Source: [Mycobacterium] zoologicum (lineage in GTDB: Bacteria > Actinomycetota > Actinomycetes > Mycobacteriales > Mycobacteriaceae). Taken from it: DNA of 38,801 bases. Under the pieces are notes generated by a model. It did not search any database. It was not told the origin of the DNA and saw only the letters and a list, made by a program, of their open reading frames with translations. The stretch lies in NCBI RefSeq assembly GCF_020172665.1, contig NZ_CP083985.1, positions 3,387,611 to 3,426,411 of the forward strand, in the 5' to 3' direction. How positions within the stretch are numbered: the first letter of the stretch is position 1; each line of letters begins with the position of its first letter. This document shows, piece by piece, positions 24,482-28,792 of this stretch. The position numbers were made by a program, and so were the translations under genes.

Positions 24482-24544
24482 CGCGAGCGTGCAGAACGGT
24501 CCGCCCCCACCTGGGGAAATGCCGCGCCAAGGTGCACGCTCGCG
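24482..24544 (+). repeat. Intergenic palindromic element, copy D (subtype 2)
   Basis: The outer arms CGCGAGCGTGCA (24482-24493) and TGCACGCTCGCG (24533-24544) are perfectly complementary. The core has CCCCCACCTGGGGAAATGCCG. It is 10 nt after the sdhB stop, so it may also serve as its terminator. Confidence 0.8.
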
Positions 24545-24578: not shown

Positions 24579-25370
24579 ATGCATTGGTACACCGGCAACG
24601 CCGTCTACGACACCGTCCTGACCGTCGCGTTCGGCTTCGCCGCCTTCGTGATCGTCGGCGGCTTCTTCGGTCAGAGCTCCTATGGGCGGTTCTCGACGAC
24701 GCAGCTCGGCTTGAATCTGAACCCGAAGTTCGGCTGGTGGCTGATGGAGATCCCGGCGACCGTCGTTTTTCTGGTCGCCTACCTGAGCGGGCCGGCCCGC
24801 TTCGAGCCGACGTCGCTGGTGCTGGCCGGGATCTGGGCGCTGCACTACGCCAACCGCGGCTGGTTCTTCCCGCTGGCGATCCGCCAGATGCCCGGCAAGC
24901 GCAGCACGTTCAACATCTCGGTCGTGGTGATGGGCATGCTCGTCACCTCCATGCACGGGTATTTGAACGGGGCGCTGTTCAGCCACGACTACTTCCACCA
25001 GTACGGCCGCGGCTGGTTGACCGATCCCCGCTTCCTGGTGGGCCTGGCGATCTACCTGTGCGGGTTCGCGCTGCTGGTCAACTCCGAGTCGATCGTGCGC
25101 AACCTGCGCGACAAGAACAACCCGAGCGGTGCCGAGTACCGGATTCCGTTCGGCGGCGGGTTCCGGTTCGTCACCAGCCCGGCGTATCTGGGCGAGATTA
25201 TCGCCTGGACCGGCTTCGCCGTGCTGACCTGGGCGCTGCCCGGGGTGGCGATCCTGTTGATCACCGCCGGCAACCTGGTCCCCCGGGCGCTGGGCACCCA
25301 CCGCTGGTACCGGGAGAAGTTCGCCGACTACCCCACCGACCGCAAGGCGCTGGTCCCCTTCCTGATCTGA
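24579..25370 (+). CDS. Steroid 5-alpha-reductase-like membrane protein
   Basis: A 263-residue polytopic membrane protein with about six or seven hydrophobic helices, of the 3-oxo-5-alpha-steroid 4-dehydrogenase family. The C-terminal signature is clear: GGFRFVTSPAYLGEIIAWTGFA, then HRWYREKFADYPTDRKALVPFLI, with the NADPH-site residues typical of SRD5A proteins. Eukaryotic members reduce the delta-4 double bond of 3-oxosteroids; mycobacterial members may act in sterol breakdown, but substrates are unproven. It has no counterpart after sdhB in M. tuberculosis and is framed by inverted palindromic elements D and E. The ATG is the first of the frame; no clear Shine-Dalgarno site is visible. Confidence 0.82.
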   Translation: MHWYTGNAVYDTVLTVAFGFAAFVIVGGFFGQSSYGRFSTTQLGLNLNPKFGWWLMEIPATVVFLVAYLSGPARFEPTSLVLAGIWALHYANRGWFFPLAIRQMPGKRSTFNISVVVMGMLVTSMHGYLNGALFSHDYFHQYGRGWLTDPRFLVGLAIYLCGFALLVNSESIVRNLRDKNNPSGAEYRIPFGGGFRFVTSPAYLGEIIAWTGFAVLTWALPGVAILLITAGNLVPRALGTHRWYREKFADYPTDRKALVPFLI

Positions 25371-25397
25371 GGCCCGGGCCCTCCCCTGCCCCCTTGG

Positions 25398-25459
25398 CGC
25401 GACCGTGCACGGGTGTACGGCATTTCCCCAGGTGGGGGCGGACATTCTGCACGCTCGCG
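25398..25459 (-). repeat. Intergenic palindromic element, copy E (subtype 2, inverted)
   Basis: On the minus strand it reads CGCGAGCGTGCAGAATGTCC and continues with GCCCCCACCTGGGGAAATGC, nearly the same as copy D. It is 27 nt after the stop codon of the reductase-like gene and 29 nt before the ECF41-type promoter. Confidence 0.8.
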
Positions 25460-25488
25460 GGGAAGGCGGGCGGGGAACAACGGGCGGC

Positions 25489-25515
25489 TGTCACATTCCG
25501 GCGGGCTGCCCCGTC
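25489..25515 (+). promoter_or_regulatory. ECF41 (SigJ)-type promoter
   Basis: TGTCACA (25489-25495) and CGTC (25512-25515) are separated by exactly 16 nt, matching the published ECF41 promoter signature as I recall it (and the related GTCACA-N16-CGTCCT reported for M. tuberculosis SigJ at sigI). The CMD gene starts 8 nt after CGTC, so the mRNA should be leaderless or nearly so. Confidence 0.75.
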
Positions 25516-25523
25516 CAAGGGGT

Positions 25524-26117
25524 ATGACTACCAAACCGCGCATCGAACCACTGCCCCCGAAACGCACCAACCTGCTGGTGCGCGCCATGTACCGCTACGC
25601 CAAGCGTCGCTTCGGTGAAGTTCCCGAGCCGTTCACCGTCGCCGCGCATCACCCCCGGCTACTGGTGGCCAACGCCGTGCACGAAGGCCTGCTGCAGAGC
25701 GGATCCCGCAAGCTGCCGACAAGCGTGCGAGAGCTGGCGGTGTTCTGGACCGCTCGCACCGTCGGCTGCTCGTGGTGCGTGGACTTCGGTTCCATGCTGA
25801 CGCGGCTGGAGGGCCTGGACGTCGACCGGCTCAAGCAGATCGACGACTACGCCACCTCGCCGCTGTTCGACGACGACGAGCGGGCGGCCATCGCCTACGC
25901 CAATGCGATGACCACCGACCCACACACCGTCACCGACGCCCAGGTCGCCGACCTGCGGGATCGCTTCGGTGATGCCGGGGTGATCGAGCTGACCTATCAG
26001 ATCGCAGTGGAGAACATGCGGTCCCGGATGTACGTCGCACTGGGCGTCACCGAGCAGGGCTTCAACTCCGGGGACGCCTGCCGGGTGCCGTGGGCGGTCA
26101 GCGACCCGCAGGAGTGA
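25524..26117 (+). CDS. Carboxymuconolactone decarboxylase-like (AhpD-fold) protein
   Basis: A 197-residue all-helical protein of the CMD/AhpD family. It carries a CxxC pair at 82-85 (VGCSWCVDFGS) preceded by VRELAVFWTARTV, typical of the peroxidase-like or redox-active branch; the usual downstream His of CxxCxxxH is not present. Members of the ECF41 regulon are very often CMD proteins encoded next to the sigma gene, which is the arrangement here: sigJ is convergent and the ECF41-type promoter lies at 25489-25515. The ATG at 25524 is 8 nt after the -10 element, so AAGGGG just before it need not act as a ribosome binding site. The last 20 nt overlap the 3' end of the small gene at 26098-26268. 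Substrate unknown. Confidence 0.82.
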   Translation: MTTKPRIEPLPPKRTNLLVRAMYRYAKRRFGEVPEPFTVAAHHPRLLVANAVHEGLLQSGSRKLPTSVRELAVFWTARTVGCSWCVDFGSMLTRLEGLDVDRLKQIDDYATSPLFDDDERAAIAYANAMTTDPHTVTDAQVADLRDRFGDAGVIELTYQIAVENMRSRMYVALGVTEQGFNSGDACRVPWAVSDPQE

Positions 26118-26268
26118 TCTCGACATAGGCGATCGAGATCCCCGCCACCGCACTGTTGCGGATCCTTTTGACCTTACCGGTGGGGGCGCCGATGTCGAAG
26201 ACGGCACGGTCACGCATCTTGTCCATGGCGCGAAACATCAACGCGCCCAGTCGCTCCGCGACAGACAT
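26098..26268 (-). CDS. 56-aa protein translationally coupled to sigJ
   Basis: A small frame of 56 codons. The protein begins MSVAERLGALMFRAMDKMRD and ends in AYVEITPAGR; it is basic in the middle (GKVKRIRNSA) with an amphipathic N-terminal helix. ATG 26266-26268 begins one base after the sigJ TGA, and GGAGG lies 7 nt upstream, overlapping the sigJ end, so co-translation with sigJ is very likely. Codon use is normal for the genome (strong third-position G/C). No membrane helix or metal motif. I do not recognise the family; a role tied to SigJ is an inference from the spacing only. The 3' end overlaps the convergent CMD gene by 20 nt. Confidence 0.65.
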   Translation of the reverse strand: MSVAERLGALMFRAMDKMRDRAVFDIGAPTGKVKRIRNSAVAGISIAYVEITPAGR

Positions 26269-26269
26269 G

Positions 26270-27178
26270 TCATCCTCCGATCGACTCGCGCAGCGGCGTG
26301 CCGCGGAACTTGTCCGGATTGGCGATGTCCCAGATCGCCACCACCCGGCCGTCGCGGACCGTCACCGCGGTGACGCGCGGCAACAATTCGGCGAACCCCT
26401 CGACGGCGGGCGCCCCGGGCGTATAGGCGCCGAGTTCGCCGTTGACCAGCGCCAGCTGCTGAGCGCCTGACAGCGTCGGGCCGTAGCGTCGCGCCAGACC
26501 GAACAGGAACCGGGCCACGCTGTCCGCACCGCGGATGACCCGCGTGGCGGTCGGGGCCCGGCGGTTGGAGTCCCCGGTGAATGTCACGTCCGGGTGCAGC
26601 AGCGCCACCACCGCGTCCAGGTCACCGGCTGCCATGGCCGCCATCAGGGTGCCGACCACCTCGGCGTGCCCCGGATCCGGTTGCGGCGCAGGATCTGCCG
26701 CGACGGCCTTGCGGGCGCGCGACGCCAACTGGCGGGCTGCGGCCGCGGTGGTGCCCAGGGTGGCGGCCACGTCGTCGAACGGCACCGAGAACCCGTCGTG
26801 CAGCACGAACGCCACCCGCTGATCCGGGGTCAGCCGGTCGAGCACCACCATCGCGGCGAACCGGGCATCTTCACCGGCCACCACCGCCGACAGCGGATCG
26901 TCGTCGCCGAACCCGGTCACCACCGGCTCCGGAAGCCATTGCCCCACATAGGCTTCCCGTCGCCGCGGCGCCGAACGCAACCGGTCCAGGCCCAGCCGGC
27001 TGACCACCGTCGTCAACCAGGCCCGCAGATCGGTGATGTCGTCACGCCCGGCGGCGTCGTAGCGCAACCAGGCATCCTGCACGATGTCCTCGGCGTCGGC
27101 GAACATGCCGGTGAGCCGGTAGGCCACCGCCAGCAGATGGGGCCGCAGCGCCTCGAAATCCTCCACCGCTGCAGTCAT
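26270..27178 (-). CDS. sigJ: ECF41-family sigma factor SigJ
   Basis: A 302-residue extracytoplasmic-function sigma factor with a fused regulatory domain. Region 2 spans about 8-75 (LAVAYRLTGMFADAEDIVQDAWLRY), region 4 about 110-165 (LTPDQRVAFVLHDGFSVPFDDVAATLG), and a SnoaL-like domain occupies about 175-290. The ECF41 hallmarks WLPEPV in the linker and NPDKF near the C-terminus are present. It aligns from memory along its length with M. tuberculosis SigJ (Rv3328c) and lies in the equivalent position. ECF41 factors have no separate anti-sigma gene; the SnoaL-like tail adjusts activity. ATG 27176-27178 lies 6 nt after a TAGGCT box. The 56-aa gene follows one base after the stop. Probable target: the convergent CMD gene. 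Confidence 0.9.
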   Translation of the reverse strand: MTAAVEDFEALRPHLLAVAYRLTGMFADAEDIVQDAWLRYDAAGRDDITDLRAWLTTVVSRLGLDRLRSAPRRREAYVGQWLPEPVVTGFGDDDPLSAVVAGEDARFAAMVVLDRLTPDQRVAFVLHDGFSVPFDDVAATLGTTAAAARQLASRARKAVAADPAPQPDPGHAEVVGTLMAAMAAGDLDAVVALLHPDVTFTGDSNRRAPTATRVIRGADSVARFLFGLARRYGPTLSGAQQLALVNGELGAYTPGAPAVEGFAELLPRVTAVTVRDGRVVAIWDIANPDKFRGTPLRESIGG

Positions 27179-27184
27179 CGCTCC

Positions 27185-27190
27185 AGCCTA
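27185..27190 (-). promoter_or_regulatory. -10 box of a leaderless sigJ promoter
   Basis: TAGGCT on the minus strand is 6 nt before the sigJ ATG. No ECF41-type element is visible upstream, so sigJ appears to be made by the housekeeping polymerase rather than by itself. Confidence 0.5.
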
Positions 27191-27204
27191 GGCGCGGGGA
27201 CCAC

Positions 27205-27642
27205 TCAGTGCGGCGGCTCAGCGCCCGGCCGCAGCCCCACCAGCGCGATCACGCAGACCGCCAGCATCGCGACACTCAAGCTGTACAGGCCGGCGTCGAC
27301 GAGATTCTCCTGCCACGCCGCACCCTGGTGACCTGCGCCGGCGATCGGCGTCGTCCGTCCGGTGCCGAAGATCGCCGCGGCCAGAGTGCTGGCCCAGTTG
27401 ACGTAGGTGCCGTAGAGCGCCAACCAGAACAGTGCGGTCAGCCAGCGCGCCGACAGCCGCAGCCGGCCCCACAGCAGGCCGAGCGCCAGCAGGAACAGCC
27501 CGTTCATCACGCCTTCAAGATGCGACGACAATCCCATCCGGGGGTTGGCCATCGACCCGCTGACGATTCCGGTGGTCAGGCCCAGCAGGAACAGGAAGAC
27601 GCCGTGCCACAACAGGGCTCGGGATTTGTCGGCAGCCACCAT
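27205..27642 (-). CDS. Four-helix membrane protein, hydroxylaminobenzene-mutase (HabB)-like
   Basis: A 145-residue integral membrane protein with four hydrophobic segments (about 10-28, 42-60, 67-88, 112-135). The segment NPRMGLSSHLEGVMNGLFLLALGLLW and the later GHQGAAWQE resemble small membrane proteins annotated as hydroxylaminobenzene mutase or, less informatively, as hydrogenase. The reaction in known HabA/HabB is rearrangement of hydroxylaminobenzene to 2-aminophenol; whether this protein does so is unknown. ATG 27640-27642 is 6 nt after TAAGGT and lacks a ribosome binding site. It is divergent from the SMP-30-like gene. Confidence 0.65.
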   Translation of the reverse strand: MVAADKSRALLWHGVFLFLLGLTTGIVSGSMANPRMGLSSHLEGVMNGLFLLALGLLWGRLRLSARWLTALFWLALYGTYVNWASTLAAAIFGTGRTTPIAGAGHQGAAWQENLVDAGLYSLSVAMLAVCVIALVGLRPGAEPPH

Positions 27643-28726: not shown

Positions 28727-28792
28727 CCGAGCGTGCACAAGTGTCCGGCAAAAGCCCAGGTGGTGCCGGACCCTTGTGCACGCTCGGCGGGG
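28722..28792 (-). repeat. Intergenic palindromic element, copy F (subtype 2, best preserved)
   Basis: The outer arms of 20 bp are perfectly complementary (28722-28741 with 28773-28792), and an inner 8-bp pair GTCCGGCA/TGCCGGAC (28743-28750 with 28764-28771) continues the stem. By its core (CACCTGGG on the minus strand) it is inverted relative to copies C, D and G. It may also act as a terminator. Confidence 0.85.

What the first reader, a model, noticed from the sequence alone, without database searches (positions are those of the whole stretch)
25489..27178. SigJ (ECF41) module with an exact ECF41 promoter on a convergent CMD gene
Seen: sigJ with WLPEPV and NPDKF hallmarks; a convergent CMD/AhpD-fold gene whose ATG lies 8 nt after TGTCACA-N16-CGTC. 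Known: ECF41 sigma factors are typically encoded beside CMD, oxidoreductase or epimerase genes carrying this promoter signature, and M. tuberculosis SigJ recognises a GTCACA-N16-CGTCCT element at sigI. Inference: this CMD gene is a direct SigJ target, expressed as a leaderless mRNA, and its redox chemistry is the output of the SnoaL-regulated sigma factor. The M. tuberculosis gene order around sigJ, as I recall it, lacks this partner.
Basis: partly seen in the sequence, partly recalled or inferred. Interest (0 to 1): 0.75.

Follow-up and report, generated by a model that had tools for sequence, protein, structure and literature searches.

The report
SigJ's conserved leaderless partner-gene promoter
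A mycobacterial stress regulator (SigJ) sits next to the small redox-type gene it most likely switches on; the switch sequence is kept across the genus sampled, altered in the one group that lost SigJ, and belongs to an already described type of regulator-target pair.

Summary
In detail: TGTCACA-N16-CGTC at 25489-25515, 8 nt before the ATG of a CMD/AhpD-fold gene convergent with sigJ. The motif alone is at chance frequency in this genome; conservation makes it real. In 118 genus genomes, 94 have a SigJ ortholog; all 94 have the CMD gene, with GTCAC-N16/17-CGTC 8-9 nt before its ATG. Eight genomes keep CMD but lack SigJ. They form one nested clade, hold CMD elsewhere, and read TGTCACA-N16-CATC. 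Seven CMD relatives outside the genus have the same promoter 34-48 nt before the ATG, so the leaderless placement looks like a mycobacterial trait. A paralogous ECF41 in the same genomes serves an oxidoreductase gene through the same -35 but TGTC. Across ECF41s, Asp/Asn at SigJ residue 65 tracks C/T at the first -10 base. Best reading: a typical ECF41 sigma-target pair (Wecke 2012), CMD being SigJ's direct, probably leaderless target. Activation, start site and chemistry are untested. New member of a known kind; the extras are the SigJ-loss rewiring and the Asp/Asn code.

The parts
25489..25495 (+). -35 element TGTCACA of the ECF41-type promoter
   Evidence: GTCAC invariant in the 94 rows with a 16-nt spacer outside the sigJ-less clade
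25512..25515 (+). -10 element CGTC
   Evidence: CGTC in 94 of 95 loci outside the sigJ-less clade, CATC in 8 of 8 sigJ-less loci
25521..25524 (+). predicted transcription start (leader 0-3 nt); inferred
   Evidence: ATG 8-9 nt after CGTC in all 94 SigJ-bearing genomes of the sample; not mapped
25524..26117 (+). CMD/AhpD-fold gene, 197 aa, CSWC at residues 82-85
26270..27178 (-). sigJ, ECF41 sigma factor with C-terminal SnoaL_2 domain
26339..26647 (-). SnoaL_2 domain of SigJ (residues 178-280)
   Evidence: 29.2 bits, cut-off 27
26984..26986 (-). codon of SigJ Asp65, proposed to read the first base of the -10 tetramer
26098..26268 (-). 56-aa in-frame remnant of a ~163-aa F420-dependent oxidoreductase gene that lies between CMD and sigJ in some relatives

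Best explanation
This is a complete ECF41 sigma factor-target module. SigJ, held in check or tuned by its fused SnoaL domain until an unknown signal changes its shape, guides RNA polymerase to TGTCACA-N16-CGTC and switches on the convergent CMD gene. The transcript probably starts at or within 3 nt of the ATG (leaderless). SigJ Asp65 helps choose C as the first base of the -10 tetramer, which separates this promoter from that of the paralogous ECF41 module in the same genome (same -35, TGTC). Shown by sequence: the parts, their conservation, their co-occurrence, the -10 partition. Inferred: activation, start site, Asp65 contact, signal, chemistry (possibly thiol-based peroxide reduction or disulfide exchange).
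For: 94 of 118 genus genomes have a SigJ ortholog and all 94 also have CMD. The 15 genomes without a CMD ortholog (14 without any match, plus G083 with only a paralogue) show no SigJ match better than 3.8e-52, the level of the paralogues. Motif and ATG distance conserved in 94 of 94, while most of the spacer varies; its last third is also fairly conserved. Three genomes with CMD outside the fetched DNA around sigJ, plus one where a locus end cuts CMD, still carry the motif. Loss of sigJ in one clade goes with CMD relocation and CGTC to CATC. Seven CMD relatives outside the genus keep the same promoter, five of the seven with a convergent ECF41 in the fetched DNA. The paralogue's own promoters are TGTC in 36 of 38 loci. 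Tested precedents in B. licheniformis and R. sphaeroides: PMC3426412 (abstract and passages).
Against: No expression data of any kind. The genome-wide motif count is at chance level. sigJ loss is one event on the tree, so that evidence is n = 1. CMD family scores are below curated cut-offs. If position -11 (numbering of Lin 2019, PMC6372665, passages) is the last C of CGTC (my assignment), strict counting puts +1 inside the ATG, so leaderless initiation needs a start 2-5 nt closer; I take that to be within normal flexibility. In 12 of the 94 genomes a second in-frame ATG lies 2 nt after CGTC, too close to be used from this promoter.
Confidence: 0.86

Rival explanations
1. CMD is driven by a different sigma factor: the paralogous ECF41 ('ECF41-B', own copy G000:C1:1090136-1090978) or the SigI-like one at 1804998; SigJ is only a neighbour.
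For: ECF41-B uses the same -35; it is present in all eight sigJ-less genomes and is the only SigJ homologue found at E 1e-15 in G009, G018 and G098; the flanks of CMD's CATC promoter there resemble ECF41-B's.
Against: ECF41-B's own promoters are GG-TGTC in 36 of 38 loci, none of them CGTC; residue 65 is Asn in ECF41-B and Asp in SigJ. SigJ and CGTC occur together in 94 of 94 genomes. The SigI-like protein also has Asp at this position, so the code does not exclude it.
Confidence: 0.08
2. CMD is mainly transcribed by read-through from the upstream steroid-dehydrogenase-like gene or by sigma-A, and the ECF motif is silent.
For: The upstream gene is on the same strand, 153 nt away.
Against: A simple sigma-70 consensus scan finds nothing in 25300-27400 (such a scan can miss mycobacterial promoters). 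The motif is kept when CMD lies elsewhere in the genome.
Confidence: 0.05
3. In the sigJ-less clade the CMD promoter was taken over by ECF41-B, or by sigma-A through the new A of CATC.
For: All eight -10 regions score on the ECF41-B side once flanks are included (-3.9 to -9.8 bits). Five of eight have A and T spaced as in the ANNNT motif that PMC6448022 (passages) associates with SigA.
Against: The core CATC by itself leans to SigJ (+4.9 bits) and fits neither; by the Asp/Asn code ECF41-B should want T first. Three of eight lack ANNNT. Takeover is unproven.
Confidence: 0.4

Closest known systems
ECF41 modules of B. licheniformis (ydfG) and R. sphaeroides (RSP_0606), PMC3426412
   Same: ECF41 sigma with fused C-terminal domain, CMD partner, TGTCACA-type -35 with a GTC/GTT-type -10
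   Different: those promoters have 31-32 nt 5' UTRs (Table 5); here the ATG sits 8 nt after CGTC
M. tuberculosis SigJ (PDB 5xe7) and its sigI target
   Same: orthologous sigma (455 bits), same Asp in region 2.4
   Different: reported target is sigI (PMC4821874, passages); whether a CMD partner exists there could not be tested
AhpD/CMD superfamily (e.g. 6k40, 2oyo)
   Same: CxxC core
   Different: below curated cut-offs; Gly where AhpD has its catalytic His (recalled)

Membership tests
ECF41 sigma factors | sigma regions 2 and 4 without region 3 | tested here: met
   Sigma70_r2 and Sigma70_r4_2 above cut-off, no region 3 match listed
ECF41 sigma factors | C-terminal SnoaL-like extension | tested here: met
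   SnoaL_2 29.2 bits, cut-off 27
ECF41 sigma factors | signature motifs WLPEP and NPDK-type (recalled) | tested here: met
   translation: WLPEPV, NPDKF
ECF41 sigma factors | linked CMD/oxidoreductase/epimerase gene with TGTCACA-N16-CGTC | tested here: met
ECF41 sigma factors | the linked gene depends on the sigma factor | not testable with these tools
   needs expression data
SigJ subfamily | NF007214 over cut-off | tested here: met
   404.9 bits, cut-off 271
AhpD/CMD family | Pfam PF02627 over cut-off | tested here: not met
   19.9 bits, cut-off 23
AhpD/CMD family | CxxC | tested here: met
   C82 and C85 in at least 99% of 100 rows
AhpD proper | catalytic His four residues after the second Cys (recalled) | tested here: not met
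   G89 in at least 99% of 100 rows
leaderless gene | transcript begins at the start codon | tested here: inconclusive
   position only: ATG 8 nt after CGTC in 89 of 94 SigJ-bearing genomes and 9 nt in 5; no 5' end mapped

The most novel reading that the evidence does not exclude
Within ECF41, one residue of region 2.4 (Asp or Asn at SigJ position 65) sets the first base of the -10 tetramer (C or T). This lets several ECF41 paralogues share one -35 in one cell yet keep separate targets. When a mycobacterial clade lost sigJ, its conserved target moved and changed its -10 to CATC, a natural rewiring that may put CMD under the paralogue or sigma-A.
Probability: 0.5. Interest if true: 0.6.

Novelty: new member of a known kind. 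Interest (0 to 1): 0.45.

Why it matters
In M. tuberculosis SigJ has been linked to sigI and sigD (PMC4821874, passages) and to peroxide sensitivity (Hu 2004, as cited). In the genus sample here CMD accompanies every SigJ ortholog, so SigJ's function may best be sought in what the CMD protein does. The paired SigJ and ECF41-B modules, and the clade that lost SigJ, give a ready natural test of how paralogous sigma factors stay separate and how a target survives loss of its regulator.

Tried and rejected
Motif counting alone: rejected, at chance for the exact motif and unspecific for the loose one. A conserved sigI link in this genome: the SigI-like locus L107/L109 has GGTTACC-N16-CGTCAT, also seen by eye in L180 and L181, not GTCACA; no SigI over cut-off among the two proteins scanned. 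M. tuberculosis gene order: no record of that name among the 80 returned loci. Small ORF between the genes as a functional peptide: thought unlikely; it looks like an in-frame remnant of a longer gene. A pattern of the sigJ-less CMD promoter (GTCACAT-N15-CATCT) was searched for a shared regulon: in 8 genomes it gave the 8 CMD sites plus 2 others, so no regulon was seen. Capture of CMD by ECF41-B is left open because core and flanks disagree. Choices that lean my way: I labelled 40 loci by hand, left out loci without a site, sites inside the sigma gene, and SigJ/ECF41-B family loci; L171 has both a TGTC and a CGTC site and was labelled T; L344 (Asn with CGTC) is a true exception and L312 is a fragment. 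Rows dropped: L051 (17-nt spacer); L104, L105, L106 (broken or shortened CMD). A reading of my own that the check overturned: I had taken the ATG 2 nt after CGTC in 12 rows for out of frame; one search shows it is in frame, two codons before the conserved ATG.

Full report
Observation. The ORF 25524-26117 encodes 197 aa with CSWC and faces sigJ (26270-27178, minus). SigJ passes NF007214 (404.9 bits, cut-off 271) and matches the M. tuberculosis SigJ structure 5xe7. The CMD assignment rests on sub-threshold family scores and on AhpD and peroxidase-related PDB chains.

Chance. In the 4.43-Mb genome TGTCACA-N15..17-CGTC occurs 3 times, against 6 for the backward control; the looser BGTCAC-N17-CGTC occurs 102 times against 43.

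Conservation. In 118 genomes of the genus (own included), 104 match CMD at 1e-20 and one of these (G083) has only a paralogue, leaving 103 with the ortholog. All 94 have CMD. The 15 genomes without the CMD ortholog have no SigJ match better than 3.8e-52; eight of them have a weaker one, four of these seen at 38-42% identity, the other four not listed. Of the 103 CMD loci, all 94 from SigJ-bearing genomes have [TCG]GTCAC[AG] and CGTC, 93 with a 16-nt and one with a 17-nt spacer; the 95th (L105, G089: sigJ and CMD both partial) reads CGCC. The conserved ATG lies 8 nt after CGTC in 89 of these 94 and 9 nt in 5. One search prints 2 or 3 nt for 15 rows because it stops at an earlier ATG: in 12 rows this is a second in-frame ATG two codons before the conserved one, in 3 it is out of frame. 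Eighty named GTDB loci, partly the same genomes, gave 72 with a CMD opposite to sigJ and the motif, one with CMD cut by the locus end and 7 without CMD in the DNA held. Four of these eight were followed (L191, L205, L223, L235); all four genomes have CMD with the motif. L197, L199, L214 and L259 were not followed.

Loss of sigJ. Eight genomes have CMD but no SigJ ortholog. Their CMDs form one clade (100/98) inside the sigJ-linked CMDs (the midpoint root falls on two broken rows and is for drawing only). Their CMD has different flanking genes: a ~580-aa permease-like ORF follows in six of eight (my reading of the translations). All eight read TGTCACA-N16-CATC-N8-ATG, and GTCACAT-N15-CATCT marks CMD in all eight, with two extra sites among the eight genomes. 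So the -35, spacing and ATG distance survived and the -10 changed. It is one event, so it supports but cannot prove that CGTC is held in place by SigJ.

The paralogue. Another ECF41 in this genome (G000:C1:1090136-1090978, here 'ECF41-B', TIGR02957 over cut-off) lies just downstream of a pyridine-nucleotide oxidoreductase-like gene. In 36 of 38 loci that gene is preceded by [TCA]GTCAC[AG]-N16-TGTC, with GG before it. The same cell thus holds two ECF41 modules with one -35 and two -10s. The -10 region of the sigJ-less CMD promoters resembles ECF41-B's by its flanks (overall -3.9 to -9.8 bits) but not by its core (+4.9 bits towards SigJ). G009, G018 and G098 have no other SigJ homologue at 1e-15. 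Who reads CATC stays open.

A residue-base code. Residue 65 of SigJ is Asp in all 141 distinct SigJ rows and Asn in all 39 ECF41-B rows. In 40 further ECF41 loci labelled, it is the best of all SigJ columns at telling CGTC from TGTC: 28 Asp/C, 10 Asn/T, one Asn/C (L344) and one fragment (L312) (Fisher p 1.7e-8 on the 39 Asp or Asn rows, without correction for kinship; my labelling choices are told under Tried and rejected). Residue 65 falls near residue 79 of sigma-L if the end of the phmmer stretch (query 73 to chain 87) is gap-free, which I did not see. Lin 2019 (PMC6372665, passages) suggests that sigma-L residues 78-82 may contact -14/-13, which by my assignment would be the first two bases of this tetramer. 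The chemistry (Asp accepting from cytosine, Asn donating to thymine) is my inference. A general ECF promoter code exists (Todor 2020, seen only as cited), so this pair may already be covered there.

Leaderless start. Seven CMD relatives from outside the genus (L301-L307, 54-67% identical) have the same promoter 34-48 nt before the ATG, each with a GGAG stretch within 16 nt of it; three more distant ones (L308-L310) have 32-37 nt. Of the remaining five matches of the order-wide search, L311-L315, each has a TGTC site next to an ECF41 instead. The tested promoters of Wecke 2012 have 31-32 nt 5' UTRs. In this genus the gap is 8-9 nt in all 94. Leaderless genes make up about a quarter of mycobacterial transcripts (PMC6448022, passages). 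The reading is therefore likely, but no 5' end has been mapped for this gene.

What it works like and what it is. It is a member of ECF41 by every feature that I tested; dependence of CMD on SigJ is the untested one. ECF41-CMD pairs and this promoter have been described since 2012, including 9 convergent pairs of 373 (PMC3426412). I found no paper describing the mycobacterial sigJ-CMD pair in the searches (listings), but most subscription papers are not in that library. The signal for SigJ and the substrate of CMD remain unknown. CMD keeps C82 and C85 in at least 99% of 100 rows and has Gly89 where AhpD has His (recalled).

Noticed in passing
window 26098-26268 (-): 56-aa ORF next to sigJ whose ends match a ~163-aa PPOX F420-dependent oxidoreductase (TIGR03666 in L007). 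Nine relatives have a match near CMD and six of them show a 162-183-aa ORF: probably an internally deleted, in-frame remnant.
   Followed up: partly
window 24485-24541, 28729-28785; diverged copy 25398-25459: Interspersed ~57-bp palindromic element GAGCGTGCA...TGCACGCTC; 17 places in the genome, 0 in the backward control. The two window copies lie in gaps between genes; a diverged copy lies upstream of the CMD promoter.
   Followed up: partly
G000:C1:1090136-1092153 (L110, L262): Second ECF41 module: oxidoreductase gene followed by an ECF41 sigma gene, promoter TGTCACA-N16-TGTC; in some relatives (e.g. L263) an ATG also lies 8 nt after the -10.
   Followed up: yes
L107/L109 (G000:C1:1804998), L180, L181: Third ECF41-like sigma gene with a divergent small gene; the gap holds GGTTACC-N16-CGTCAT, conserved in the three loci by eye.
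   Followed up: no
L296, L297: A second, distant CMD class (29% identical) directly upstream of an Asn-type ECF41, with GGTCACG-N16-TGTC.
   Followed up: partly
G045, G076, G089 (L104, L106, L105): CMD split or shortened in three genomes; in G076 and G089 sigJ is broken or partial too: decay or assembly error.
   Followed up: no
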